From NCBI GenBank assembly GCA_030625925.1, contig DAOUPY010000013.1, positions 1 through 13,114 on the forward strand: a stretch of 13,114 bases of DNA. The letters are read 5' to 3'. The stretch is from Fusobacteriaceae bacterium (GTDB taxonomy: Bacteria; Fusobacteriota; Fusobacteriia; Fusobacteriales; Fusobacteriaceae). Positions 2,682 through 11,298 of this stretch are shown here, piece after piece (positions within the stretch are counted from its first letter, which is position 1; each line of letters begins with the position of its first letter). A program made the translations under genes and the position numbers. Below the pieces are notes generated by a model. The model saw nothing but the letters and a program-made list of their open reading frames with translations, was not told where the DNA came from and searched no databases.

Positions 2682-2839
2682 TATAACGTTCTTTTTTTCT
2701 ATAGTTTCCTTATACCATGTTTTTTTCTCTCTTCCTTAGTTCATCTATAAAGATTTTATCATAGTATTAATTGAAAAACATAATAAACTTTTTTGATTTA
2801 ATTCTATGTAAAAAATTATAATTATATATTATATCATTT

Positions 2840-2860
2840 ATGTATATGATCAATAATAAT
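2840..2860 (+). repeat. Iteron-like 21-bp repeat, copy 3
   Basis: ATGTATAT, GA, TCAATAATAAT. It belongs to the AATAATAAT-ended subclass that is otherwise found in the rep-rpmH gap. Confidence 0.8.
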
Positions 2861-2894
2861 ATTAATCCACACAGTAAAGAAATAAAAATCCATC

Positions 2895-2915
2895 TTTATT
2901 TTTGTATGTATACAT
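2895..2915 (-). repeat. Iteron-like 21-bp repeat, copy 4 (left half of an inverted pair)
   Basis: Read on the minus strand it is ATGTATAC, AT, ACAAAAATAAA, identical to copies 5 and 14. It faces copy 5 across 28 bp. Confidence 0.9.
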
Positions 2916-2943
2916 ATTTAATCCAAGGTTTTCCACTTTCATT

Positions 2944-2964
2944 ATGTATACATACAAAAATAAA
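2944..2964 (+). repeat. Iteron-like 21-bp repeat, copy 5 (right half of an inverted pair)
   Basis: Exact reverse complement of copy 4, with 28 bp between them. This gives a head-to-head pair with the ATGTATAC ends on the inside. Confidence 0.9.
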
Positions 2965-3145
2965 CATATACACTTAATACATCACTTTCTTTTTAATAGT
3001 TAGTTGATCATTTGAAAACATTAATAAAAAAGCAATATGATGTTGCAGATGGGCACAATTCTATATTCACGAAATAAATTACTAGTCTTTTGACGGTGCC
3101 CCTTGTAGATATAATTTCCCAGACTATAAAAGTAAAGCCTATATT

Positions 3146-3166
3146 ATGTATACGTTCAATAATAAA
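3146..3166 (+). repeat. Iteron-like 21-bp repeat, copy 6
   Basis: ATGTATAC, GT, TCAATAATAAA, followed by GTTT. It lies five bases from the symmetrical terminator at the end of rep. Confidence 0.85.
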
Positions 3167-3171
3167 GTTTC

Positions 3172-3213
3172 GCTAAATAAAAAAGATCACTGAAGTGACC
3201 TTTTTTATTTAGC
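3172..3213. terminator. Symmetrical intrinsic terminator at the 3' end of rep
   Basis: A 42-bp inverted repeat. Two 20-base arms, GCTAAATAAAAAAGATCACT and its near-perfect complement, differ at one position and meet at a GA centre. An A-tract on one side and a T-tract on the other let it work in both directions. It starts three bases beyond the rep stop codon on the minus strand and would also stop rightward transcription into rep. Confidence 0.9.
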
Positions 3214-3216
3214 CTA

Positions 3217-5088
3217 TCATTTACCATCTTTCAAAGCTATTCCTATATATTTTTTTAATGTTATAAAGTATACTCTTTTGGATACTTTTCTTAAATTATA
3301 TAAAAATTCTTTTGGTATATCTTCATATTGTGAACATAATCCCAAAGCTTTTTCCTCTATAATTAATTTTTCAAATTCATCCAGCCCATGATAATCTTGC
3401 ATAACATCATGTTTTGGAGCATCTTCAATAACATCTTTTATATTTGTTATCTCTGGATTTTTCAAGTGTTTTCTTGCTTTCTTTAACTGTTTTTTACTCT
3501 TTAAAGGTTTTTCTCTGGTTACTTGGTTAAATAAAGTTAGATTGTTTTTATTGGATTTTCTAGCATTCCTATCCATCTTTCTCAAATTTCTTAATATTCC
3601 ATTTATATATTGGACTAAAGTGGATTTTATTTCCGAGTTAAGACGTTTATATAGAAGGTTTAGTATCTCAATAGCAACCTCTTCTCCATCTTCCCTTATT
3701 ATCTTTTTAAATTTATTATCTACTCTTTTATTCCAAGCTCTTGAAACAAATATATTTCTTTTACACTTAATTATCTTACTTTGCAGTTCCTCTGAAAAGT
3801 CTTTTAATCTTTCTCTTACATCTTCAGATAAGTTAATTTCATTAGTTTTATTTTTGTCAACCTTTGCAGTAATTATCTCAGCATCCATTATCTCATCGTT
3901 ATCTTTTATTTCTATTTCTTTTATCTTATCCTTTATTATTTCTTTGGTTATAAATGATTTTTCTTTCTTAGCTTTCTTAGCAGCATTTACTGTATCCCAT
4001 TTCCCCTTGTATTCCACTTGTTTTTCTTGTCCGTTTAGATAACTGGATATATGACAAGTTCCATCTTTATCTTGATTAAATTTATAAATTATATAATAAC
4101 TGTCCTCTTCGGCAATAAATTCCGAATTAAAATACTCCATATATCCCAATTCTTTTAAAAGCGAAAAAGCTTTCTCAATTCTTTTTAATACTTGCTTTAC
4201 CCTGCTTAATACATAGATTCTTTTCTCACCGGTTTTATTAACTCTCTCTGTTTCCTGTTCCATTTTTAATGGAATTATAGCTGCTAAAGTCCTGATATTT
4301 ATAGAATCCTCCTGCTTGGAATATCTAATTTTACTTATATATTTATAGATTCTTGCAGCAATAGGATCCTTTTCCATTATTTCTATAAGAGCTTTAGAAT
4401 TATATTTTATATATCTTTTATCTTTAATTTTATTTCTGATATTTTTATTCAAAGTTACTTTATAATATACCTTTGTTCCCACTTTAAGTTTTTGATAAGT
4501 AAGCAGTTTAAATTCCTCATCTTCAAATTGATAGTTTCCTAACTTACTATGGTTAGATACTTCAAACTGGTATTCAGTACTCTTTAAATTTTTAAGTGCC
4601 TGGGCCACCTTGGTATAATAATTTCTATTCATTTTGTTACCTAAAAAATTAACTATAAAATCTGAAATTTCAAATTTTATATACTCGTCTGTATCATTAG
4701 TTTCCTTTTTTAACTCATAGAGAGATATAAGGTATGTATAAATTTTTTCTTCAAAAATAGATGGTTGGTATACTTTATCCTCTGAATTCTTTGCAACTAA
4801 TGTACAATACATAGTCACTCCTAAATCTTCAAAAGAATATTTAAAGTTTATTTTTTTATTTTGTTTTTGAGGTGTAAAAAATGGAAAAACTATCATTTCT
4901 ATTGGTATATTTATTATATTTTCTTTTAAATCTAAAAAATTACCAGTTTCTTTGATAACAACTTCTCTTACTTCTATTTCAGGAAGTTCACTCATTTTTA
5001 TATCAACTTTAGTCAAGTCAGTCAACAGTGATCCAGTTTTATTTAAATTAAATTGATCTATTAAATCTACATTTTCTTCCCTTGACAT
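3217..5088 (-). CDS. Plasmid-type replication initiator protein (Rep, winged-helix)
   Basis: A 623-residue protein, best read as a Rep/RPA-like initiator that binds iterons and opens the origin. The N-terminal third looks like the first winged-helix of such proteins (about residues 57-180, with IFEEKIYTYLISL). A second winged helix (about 205-310) contains DPIAARIYKYISKIRY, the recurrent segment of this fold. The C-terminal half is long and basic with lysine-rich stretches, and ends in an alpha-helical part including VQYINGILRN. An ATG 27 bases upstream (5115) is in frame. I prefer 5088 because GGAGGGG lies just before it and because a degenerate iteron overlaps the upstream ATG. It has its own promoter, its own terminator, and runs divergently from rpmH, in the position where dnaA is usual. 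The general class is fairly sure; the exact family and the role in chromosomal rather than plasmid replication are inferences. Confidence 0.8.
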   Translation of the reverse strand: MSREENVDLIDQFNLNKTGSLLTDLTKVDIKMSELPEIEVREVVIKETGNFLDLKENIINIPIEMIVFPFFTPQKQNKKINFKYSFEDLGVTMYCTLVAKNSEDKVYQPSIFEEKIYTYLISLYELKKETNDTDEYIKFEISDFIVNFLGNKMNRNYYTKVAQALKNLKSTEYQFEVSNHSKLGNYQFEDEEFKLLTYQKLKVGTKVYYKVTLNKNIRNKIKDKRYIKYNSKALIEIMEKDPIAARIYKYISKIRYSKQEDSINIRTLAAIIPLKMEQETERVNKTGEKRIYVLSRVKQVLKRIEKAFSLLKELGYMEYFNSEFIAEEDSYYIIYKFNQDKDGTCHISSYLNGQEKQVEYKGKWDTVNAAKKAKKEKSFITKEIIKDKIKEIEIKDNDEIMDAEIITAKVDKNKTNEINLSEDVRERLKDFSEELQSKIIKCKRNIFVSRAWNKRVDNKFKKIIREDGEEVAIEILNLLYKRLNSEIKSTLVQYINGILRNLRKMDRNARKSNKNNLTLFNQVTREKPLKSKKQLKKARKHLKNPEITNIKDVIEDAPKHDVMQDYHGLDEFEKLIIEEKALGLCSQYEDIPKEFLYNLRKVSKRVYFITLKKYIGIALKDGK

Positions 5089-5107
5089 AACCCCTCCATT
5101 AATTTTT

Positions 5108-5128
5108 TTGTCCATTCACAATAATAAT
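5108..5128 (+). repeat. Degenerate iteron-like repeat, copy 7 (rep leader)
   Basis: Matches copy 10 at 17 of 21 positions, including the whole CACAATAATAAT end. It lies just downstream of the predicted rep transcription start (about 5135) and overlaps the alternative rep ATG. Confidence 0.5.
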
Positions 5129-5141
5129 CCTAGTGTCATAC

Positions 5142-5170
5142 ATAGTATCATCAAAATAAAATAAATTCAA
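5142..5170 (-). promoter_or_regulatory. rep promoter
   Basis: On the minus strand: -35 TTGAAT (5165-5170), 17-bp spacer, -10 TACTAT (5142-5147) preceded by TGA, an extended -10. Transcription would begin near 5135. An iteron-like copy ends two bases upstream of the -35 box and a degenerate copy lies just after the start point, so Rep could repress its own synthesis. Confidence 0.7.
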
Positions 5171-5172
5171 CC

Positions 5173-5193
5173 TTTATTTTTGAAAGTATACAT
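5173..5193 (-). repeat. Iteron-like 21-bp repeat, copy 8 (at rep promoter)
   Basis: On the minus strand: ATGTATAC, TT, TCAAAAATAAA. It abuts the rep -35 box with two bases between. Confidence 0.85.
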
Positions 5194-5294
5194 ATACTTT
5201 GTTCTGTTATTATAGGCGTATAACTGTTCTTTCTTCTCTTTTTCAACTAATAATAATCATAGCAAAATAACTTTTAAAACACTTTAATAAAATT

Positions 5295-5315
5295 ATGTAT
5301 ACGAACATTAATAAT
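5295..5315 (+). repeat. Iteron-like 21-bp repeat, copy 9 (phased array)
   Basis: ATGTATAC, GA, ACATTAATAAT. First of four same-direction copies in the rep-rpmH gap; 93 bp to the next. Confidence 0.8.
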
Positions 5316-5387
5316 ACTCACCCTTCAACTACTCTTAATAATATTAGGATTATAAAAAACTATCATTGAAAAAACTAGCCTCAAAGT

Positions 5388-5408
5388 ATGTATATACACA
5401 ATAATAAT
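5388..5408 (+). repeat. Iteron-like 21-bp repeat, copy 10 (phased array)
   Basis: ATGTATAT, AC, ACAATAATAAT. The next copy begins exactly 105 bp further on. Confidence 0.85.
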
Positions 5409-5492
5409 TATATTATTCTGAATTTATTGGATTTATTGAGCTTTAAACTAAGGTTGTAAACCAAATCCCTTTAAAAATAACGAATTCAACTT

Positions 5493-5513
5493 ATGTACAC
5501 ACACAATAATAAT
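5493..5513 (+). repeat. Iteron-like 21-bp repeat, copy 11 (phased array)
   Basis: ATGTACAC, AC, ACAATAATAAT. The next copy begins exactly 105 bp further on. Confidence 0.85.
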
Positions 5514-5597
5514 TAAAAGCTTTAACAAAACAAGTTTTTATTGAGGTTTCATTATCTATAAAGTTGATAAACCTTTATATTTCAAGGCTTTTAGCCT

Positions 5598-5618
5598 GTG
5601 TATATCTACAGTAATAAA
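5598..5618 (+). repeat. Iteron-like 21-bp repeat, copy 12 (phased array)
   Basis: GTGTATAT, CT, ACAGTAATAAA, two mismatches to the consensus. Last of the phased run and next to the most A+T-rich stretch. A small hairpin (AGGCT, TTT, AGCCT) lies just before it. Confidence 0.7.
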
Positions 5619-5758
5619 AAAATAAGGCTTATTTCTTTTCTAACCCTTATAAAATATAGATTTCCTTTATAACAAATATTGACTTTACTTTTACTACATC
5701 TTACAAAAAACAAATACTCTTTTTGGTTACTTTTATAAAAAACTTATTAAAAATTATC

Positions 5759-5787
5759 TTGACAAAATATAACTTATATATTAGAAT
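5759..5787 (+). promoter_or_regulatory. rpmH promoter
   Basis: A consensus -35 TTGACA (5759-5764), a 17-bp spacer and -10 TAGAAT (5782-5787). It gives a leader of about 45 bases before rpmH and is the main visible promoter for the rpmH-rnpA-yidD-yidC-khpB-mnmE cluster. Confidence 0.88.
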
Positions 5788-5838
5788 TATAAACTGAAAT
5801 GACAATTTTTTTAAAAGCAATTAGGAGGTGTATCAAAG

Positions 5839-5979
5839 ATGGCAAGTAAGAGAACGTTTCAACCAAATAATAGAAAAAGAAAAAAGGAACACGGATTCAG
5901 AAAAAGAATGGCAACTAAAGCAGGAAGATCTGTTTTAAAGAGAAGAAGAGCTAAAGGTAGAACGATATTGTCAGCATAA
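5839..5979 (+). CDS. rpmH: 50S ribosomal protein L34
   Basis: L34 is a small basic protein of the large ribosomal subunit, buried in 23S rRNA. The 46-residue product begins [20 protein letters not shown] and ends [12 protein letters not shown]. This fits the L34 signature (an N-terminal RTFQPNxRKRxxxHGFRxRM block, then an arginine/lysine-rich tail) and the usual 44-46 length. AGGAGGTG lies eight bases before the ATG, a very strong ribosome binding site. It is the first gene of the rightward cluster, and a hairpin follows its stop codon, separating highly expressed rpmH from rnpA. dnaA, which commonly precedes rpmH, is not here. Confidence 0.98.
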
Positions 5980-6007
5980 AACCCGGTGTTCATATCACCG
6001 GGTTTTT
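5979..6007 (+). terminator. Terminator/attenuator between rpmH and rnpA
   Basis: A 10-bp perfect stem, AAACCCGGTG paired with CACCGGGTTT, with a seven-base loop and a short U-tract. It overlaps the last base of the rpmH stop codon. No separate rnpA promoter is visible in the remaining gap, so partial read-through is likely; this would yield more L34 than RnpA. Confidence 0.88.
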
Positions 6008-11239: not shown

Positions 11240-11277
11240 ATCTTTAGGCCTTGTCCTAATATTAATAGTTAACAAAT

Positions 11278-11298
11278 ATGTATACATACAAAAATAAA
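11278..11298 (+). repeat. Iteron-like 21-bp repeat, copy 14 (upstream of the fluoride riboswitch)
   Basis: ATGTATAC, AT, ACAAAAATAAA, identical to copies 4 and 5 more than 8 kb away. It ends 21 bases before the antiporter -35 box. It is the rightmost copy seen. Confidence 0.9.

What the first reader, a model, noticed from the sequence alone, without database searches (positions are those of the whole stretch)
3217..5838. Plasmid-like Rep initiator in the place of dnaA: a possible iteron-driven chromosomal origin
The rpmH-rnpA-yidD-yidC-jag-mnmE-mnmG cluster typically adjoins dnaA and oriC. Here the neighbour is a Rep/RPA-like initiator with repeats around it, gene direction switches in the gap between them, and no perfect DnaA box was seen by eye. 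Rep proteins with iterons drive plasmids and some secondary replicons; use at a primary chromosome origin would be unusual. Either the chromosome starts from this system, or a captured plasmid origin works beside DnaA.
Basis: partly seen in the sequence, partly recalled or inferred. Interest (0 to 1): 0.87.

Follow-up and report, generated by a model that had tools for sequence, protein, structure and literature searches.

The report
Plasmid-type initiator in DnaA's place
The bacterial family Fusobacteriaceae appears to have lost DnaA, the near-universal protein that starts chromosome copying, and to use instead a plasmid-type initiator that sits in DnaA's old place beside its own set of DNA binding repeats.

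Summary
The window is the replication origin of a Psychrilyobacter-like chromosome, with a RepA/RPA-type initiator where dnaA normally stands, beside rpmH-rnpA-yidD-yidC-jag-mnmE-mnmG.

The DnaA domain IV profile finds 0 of 61 held genomes of the family and 36 of 37 other Fusobacteriota. The Rep profile finds 59 of 61 family genomes: 56 strongly, two as pieces at contig ends, one only as a second-replicon type. It finds 1 of 37 others.

In complete chromosomes GC skew switches at rep and again near the antipode; the window's cumulative minimum lies in 5001-6000.

A 20-bp box, TATGTAYAYNNNCAATAATA, occurs 15 times in the window, 0.06 expected. All 24 rep-rpmH gaps tested hold at least five, 151 of 158 boxes in one orientation, 81 of 126 same-strand spacings being 83-127 bp.

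In outgroups dnaA fills the same slot. One outgroup, taken as Haliovirga, has dnaA on its chromosome and a related Rep on a plasmid.

Best reading: a plasmid Rep displaced DnaA in place in the family's ancestor. Rep binding and replication peaks remain untested.

The parts
3217..5115 (-). rep: RPA/RepA-type initiator, 632 aa; likelier start at 5088 (623 aa)
   Evidence: ORF; PF10134 27.9 bits; tandem winged-helix fold match; start by my reading
5116..5838 (.). rep-rpmH gap: proposed chromosomal origin, 723 bp, 22% GC
   Evidence: GC-skew minimum; 5 Rep boxes; GC
5175..5194 (-). Rep box, inverted
   Evidence: 1 mismatch
5294..5313 (+). Rep box
   Evidence: 1 mismatch
5387..5406 (+). Rep box
   Evidence: exact
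5492..5511 (+). Rep box
   Evidence: exact
5597..5616 (+). Rep box
   Evidence: 2 mismatches
5107..5126 (+). Rep box across the rep ORF start; proposed autoregulation (inferred)
   Evidence: 2 mismatches
2682..3216 (.). mfd-rep gap with four Rep boxes (2839, 2897, 2943, 3145)
3172..3213 (.). hairpin just past the rep stop codon, possible terminator
   Evidence: inverted repeat, 20-nt arms, 95% complementary; the terminator scan did not list it (0 found)
5759..5787 (+). rpmH promoter-like site TTGACA-17-TAGAAT
   Evidence: 11 of 12; CTTGACAA present in 14 of 17 gaps
5839..5979 (+). rpmH, first gene of the cluster that normally adjoins dnaA
   Evidence: PF00468
9347..9366 (+). outlying Rep box between mnmE and mnmG
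   Evidence: 2 mismatches
11277..11296 (+). outlying Rep box after mnmG
   Evidence: 1 mismatch

Best explanation
This is the origin of the primary chromosome, and it is run by a plasmid-derived initiator, not by DnaA. In the ancestor of Fusobacteriaceae a RepA/RPA-type Rep displaced dnaA in its own slot (gyrB-recF-S4-[dnaA -> rep]-rpmH-rnpA...). Shown by comparison: family-wide lack of detectable DnaA, presence and position of Rep, coincidence with the skew origin, conserved boxes. Inferred: Rep binds the directly repeated boxes through two winged helices; boxes spaced mostly about 8-12 helical turns apart bend or wrap the AT-rich gap and help melt it; a helical C-terminal module, shared with Rep_3-type plasmid initiators, recruits DnaB, perhaps with DciA; boxes at the rep start give autoregulation, and boxes scattered within about 100 kb titrate or pair Rep and so time initiation without DnaA's ATP switch.
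Against: No experiment: skew records the historical origin, and the boxes are not shown to bind Rep. Five family genomes lack a strong chromosomal-type Rep: G003 and G036 have pieces at contig ends, G004 only a second-replicon type, G009 and G025 nothing; for G009 and G025 contig starts near mnmE or recF suggest an assembly break, G004 was not followed up. 9 of 37 family genomes have weak PF00308 hits (best 1.4e-11), in frames of 148-297 aa. The AF2 model is weak (pLDDT 59), fold matches have rmsd 6.6-10, and Foldseek had none at E<=0.001. The C-terminal module matches nothing credible. Skew exceptions: L043, L057, L061, L066, a reversed patch at about 171-180 kb in G007. One-mismatch DnaA boxes exceed shuffles in some gaps (L114 9 against 2.1, L104 7 against 1.9, L025 7 against 1.5). 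Helical phasing is weak once repeated spacings are collapsed (R 0.40 at 10.5 bp, 27 values). The plasmid ancestry rests on a tree with long branches and a midpoint root.
Confidence: 0.88

Rival explanations
1. The origin is here, but an unrecognised initiator (a very divergent DnaA or another AAA+ protein) starts replication, and Rep is an accessory factor or transcription regulator.
For: Rep binding is untested; 9 of 37 family genomes have weak PF00308 hits; in some gaps one-mismatch DnaA boxes exceed shuffles; Rep boxes also lie outside the gap.
Against: No PF08299 in 61 of 61 family genomes; weak PF00308 hits are missing from 28 of 37 family genomes; Rep in the dnaA slot with conserved directly repeated boxes in 24 of 24 gaps is what an initiator's origin looks like.
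Confidence: 0.08
2. A plasmid integrated next to rpmH, and DnaA still starts the chromosome from elsewhere.
For: Homologous Reps run plasmids of the phylum.
Against: DnaA not detected in any of 61 family genomes, six of them single contigs; skew switches at rep in the complete chromosomes sampled; rep is at this locus across named genera of the family.
Confidence: 0.02
3. Assembly or annotation artefact: dnaA missed in incomplete genomes.
For: The window's own assembly is 82% complete in 576 contigs.
Against: The same profile finds 36 of 37 relatives outside the family and 0 of the family's single-contig genomes.
Confidence: 0.02

Closest known systems
DnaA-oriC origins, as in the other Fusobacteriota families
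   Same: Same gene slot between S4-recF and rpmH-rnpA-yidD-yidC; skew switch at the locus
   Different: No DnaA detected in the family; a different box; no AAA+ match in the initiator
Iteron plasmids with WH1-WH2 initiators (mini-F RepE, R6K pi; Pfam RPA, Rep_3)
   Same: Predicted tandem winged helices; directly repeated boxes beside rep
   Different: Main chromosome; 81 of 126 same-strand spacings are 83-127 bp, not about 22 bp (plasmid value recalled); boxes also up to about 100 kb away
RctB of Vibrio cholerae chromosome 2
   Different: Vibrio keeps DnaA for chromosome 1 (recalled); here Rep stands alone on the main chromosome
dnaA-less cyanobacteria (PMC7198777; passages seen)
   Same: Free-living bacteria without dnaA
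   Different: Those passages describe irregular skew and multiple origins; here there is one clear skew origin and an identifiable replacement initiator
Plasmids pHIC (Haliovirga abyssi), pILYOP01 and pILYOP02 (Ilyobacter polytropus)
   Same: Homologous Rep, 33-42% identical; ParA-ParB beside it on pHIC, ParA on pILYOP02
   Different: Plasmids or megaplasmids; their upstream regions lack the chromosomal box and, on the two examined (pHIC, pILYOP01), carry other repeats

Membership tests
Pfam RPA (PF10134) replication initiators | Profile match over the curated cut-off | tested here: met
   27.9 bits against 27, residues 76-277; F. vincentii Rep 31.5 bits
Iteron-type Rep replicons | Initiator with two winged-helix domains | tested here: met
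Iteron-type Rep replicons | Several direct repeats of about 20 bp beside rep | tested here: met
   At least 5 in 24 of 24 gaps; 151 of 158 in one orientation
Iteron-type Rep replicons | Iterons in close tandem, about two helical turns apart (recalled) | tested here: not met
   Of 126 same-strand spacings 1 is near 22 bp (21 bp, L020); 22 are 91-95 and 44 are 101-107 bp
Iteron-type Rep replicons | Rep binds the iterons and opens the DNA | not testable with these tools
   Needs purified protein
DnaA-oriC origins | DnaA encoded in the genome | tested here: not met
   PF08299 in 0 of 61 family genomes
DnaA-oriC origins | Cluster of DnaA boxes at the origin | tested here: inconclusive
   0 exact boxes in 24 gaps, but also 0 in 3 outgroup gaps; one-mismatch boxes exceed shuffles in some gaps
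DnaA-oriC origins | Position next to rpmH and recF-gyrB | tested here: met
   the recF-gyrB side has moved in the window's own genus
Secondary chromosome or chromid | Coexists with a DnaA-driven main chromosome | tested here: not met
   Single-contig family genomes have this locus and no DnaA

The most novel reading that the evidence does not exclude
A first family-wide, in-place replacement of DnaA by a plasmid initiator on the primary chromosome of free-living and host-associated bacteria, including the genus Fusobacterium: a bacterial chromosome started by an initiator without an ATPase domain through widely spaced, helically phased boxes, with a zone of Rep boxes about 100 kb to either side of the origin serving as its timing device.
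Probability: 0.75. Interest if true: 0.95.

Novelty: new variant of a known kind. Interest (0 to 1): 0.88.

Why it matters
DnaA is widely treated as the mark of a bacterial chromosome: PMC13342612 says the largest replicon almost invariably harbours the DnaA-dependent origin (it does mention dnaA loss in some intracellular symbionts), and PMC12456017 uses DnaA as its clustering centre for chromosomes (passages seen). A family that dispensed with it, yet kept one clear skew origin, shows that the initiator can be replaced and that timing need not rest on DnaA's ATP cycle. It makes an old question, whether a plasmid Rep can take over a main chromosome, testable in cultured species (Ilyobacter, Propionigenium). 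Tools that call chromosomes or origins by dnaA would fail here: some records name this Rep 'DnaA', and a 2.1-Mb F. vincentii record with this locus is filed as a plasmid.

Tried and rejected

De novo seeding of repeats in the gaps was swamped by A/T; a consensus scan replaced it. A second conserved element between boxes: k-mer enrichment gave mainly the rpmH ribosome site and promoter; not pursued.

Left out of counts. L014 has a gap but was not given; L009, L022 and L026-L033 were not given (short flanks or duplicates). The limits of the three outgroup gaps were estimated from the domain hits, not from annotated starts. Tree: 15 of 48 Reps left out: six Rep_3-type or C-terminal-only plasmid copies, one mis-picked 17-residue fragment, L143 and L024 (incomplete), five near-duplicates, and L152, a chromosomal one, without a good reason. 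'Plasmid' in that tree means 'not in the rpmH slot' for L140 and L141, whose replicons are unknown; positions from the printed rows; G000, G006 and G007 were left out (listing cut or genome fragmentary), one G031 hit on another contig too; G062 and G020 are contigs, not whole chromosomes. The G076 samples do not contain the rep locus.

Skew on the second replicon of G007 (8 samples) is less clear-cut at its rep.

Literature: all 10 searches listed no paper on loss of DnaA in Fusobacteriaceae; the library is open-access only. PMC7203096: no 'DnaA' in the 300,000 characters held.

Full report
What is there. Window 3217..5115(-) encodes a 632-aa protein whose only Pfam match over a cut-off is RPA, replication initiator protein A (27.9 bits, cut-off 27). 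It faces rpmH-rnpA-yidD-yidC-jag-mnmE-mnmG across a 723-bp gap of 22% GC. The other neighbour is mfd. The genus is probably Psychrilyobacter: L008, titled Psychrilyobacter sp., has the match position of G001, a genome of the window's genus. G006, also of the genus, has two contigs with the lengths of ZRK30 plasmids.

DnaA is not detectable in the family. The DnaA C-terminal domain PF08299 is found in 0 of 61 genomes of family f1 and in 36 of 37 other Fusobacteriota, the one miss being an 82% complete genome. The ATPase domain PF00308 is found at E<1e-44 in 24 of 24 outgroup genomes and in 0 of 37 family genomes. Nine of those 37 have weaker hits (best 1.4e-11) in frames of 148-297 aa, which I read as DnaC- or IstB-like. 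Six family genomes are single contigs.

Rep is family-wide. The profile A2 matches 59 of 61 family genomes: 56 at E<=5.6e-189; G003 and G036 only with pieces at contig ends; G004 (76% complete) only with a second-replicon type of Rep. G009 and G025 have none. In G009 recF starts at base 309 of one contig and mnmE at 2507 of another; in G025 mnmE starts at 1460 of its contig; so the assemblies probably break at the locus. Outside the family 1 of 37 genomes matches, G038, at the start of its second contig. I take G038 to be Haliovirga abyssi and that contig to be pHIC, by position of the gene, not by name.

Rep sits in the dnaA slot. In 7 of 7 outgroup loci dnaA is followed by S4 and recF (up to 1.8 kb apart, L098); in the three where the contig reaches further, rpmH-rnpA-yidD lies on dnaA's other side (L097, L100, L102). 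In 18 distinct family loci S4 and recF follow rep in the same way (2.5 kb away in L013). In the window's genus, in 6 of 7 Cetobacterium loci fetched and in F. mortiferum L025 the recF side has moved, while the rpmH side is kept.

The locus is the skew origin. Left of rep 28 of 29 are negative, right of it 26 of 29 are positive, and two more lie on rep or on the antipode; the second switch is near the antipode. The exceptions are L066, L057, L061 and L043. In the same genus (G007, 2.33 Mb) it is 7 of 7 and 6 of 8, with a reversed patch near 171-180 kb. In F. vincentii SB055 it is 6 of 7 and 5 of 6. Finer blocks put the local minimum at rep or the gap in G076, G012, G027 and G007, and at 5001-6000 in the window.

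The boxes. TATGTAYAYNNNCAATAATA, read from the window, occurs 15 times there with at most 2 mismatches, 0.06 expected. With at most 3 mismatches, 24 of 24 rep-rpmH gaps given have at least 5, shuffle means 0.03-0.57; three outgroup dnaA-rpmH gaps and the upstream regions of three plasmid reps have none, and that of the second replicon of G007 has one (0.40 expected). At most 2 mismatches: the F. gastrosuis origin sample has 15 and the other 19 samples 6 together; in G012 it is 8 against 0. Of 158 boxes 151 point towards rpmH. Of 126 same-strand spacings 22 are 91-95 bp, 44 are 101-107 and 9 are 115-118. This looks like helical phasing, but collapsed to 27 distinct values the periodicity is weak (R 0.40 at 10.5 bp). 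In nine replicons 133 boxes with at most 1 mismatch were tallied: 46 within 5 kb of rep and 108 within 100 kb. The reversed pattern gave 13 matches where the pattern gave 183, in 12 genomes.

DnaA boxes do not discriminate: exact ones are absent both here and in the three outgroup gaps, and one-mismatch ones exceed shuffles in some Fusobacterium gaps.

Origin of the system. Homologues 33-42% identical run pHIC, pILYOP01 and pILYOP02, with ParA-ParB beside rep on pHIC and ParA on pILYOP02. G038, outside the family, has dnaA on its main contig and a Rep of this kind on its other contig, the state expected before displacement. The 25 chromosomal Reps lie on one side of a branch against 8 others (100/99), with long branches and a midpoint root. 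The second replicon of the genus and the two plasmids examined have different, also widely spaced repeats (a search in A/T-rich DNA, so tentative).

Mechanism. Shown by comparison: replacement, position, boxes. Inferred: binding, melting, recruitment by the C-terminal module with DciA, autoregulation at the boxes next to the rep start, timing by outlying boxes.

Prior knowledge. Ten searches of an open-access library listed nothing on this. PMC7198777 says that free-living bacteria without dnaA were unknown before its cyanobacteria (passages). PMC13342612 and PMC12456017 treat DnaA as the chromosome's mark (passages). Subscription papers are not covered, so a remark in an early Fusobacterium genome paper cannot be excluded.

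Noticed in passing
L111 (G007 C3, 1,146,430 bp) and L138 (own genome, contig C525): The genus has a second large replicon with its own RPA-type Rep and its own repeats (about TATAATAAATAAAGGATTATAA), different from the chromosomal box; one exact DnaA box lies upstream of that rep.
   Followed up: partly
window 3217-3820; L005 and L006: The C-terminal module of the chromosomal Rep (KRNI..V..AWNKR.DNK...TLVQYINGI) is shared with Rep_3-type plasmid initiators and has no known relative found here; a possible docking part for the replisome.
   Followed up: partly
L001 (NZ_CP084075.1, 2,108,235 bp): A Fusobacterium vincentii record of chromosome size, with this locus, is filed as plasmid pSB055A in the plasmid collection.
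   Followed up: partly
P0023, P0089, P0108, P0140: Some database records name this Rep 'chromosomal replication initiator DnaA'.
   Followed up: no
G064:C6:11921-13597, C6:16215-18029, C4:749646-751460: One genome shows two equal-scoring intact rep copies and a decayed copy with 13 stops near one of them.
   Followed up: no
window 9347 and 11277; G075, G076, G077: Rep boxes scattered up to about 100 kb from the origin; a possible titration or regulatory zone.
   Followed up: partly
L141 (G022:C1:122209-123840): A further kind of RPA-type Rep (588-aa frame) on a 449-kb contig; its replicon is unknown.
   Followed up: no
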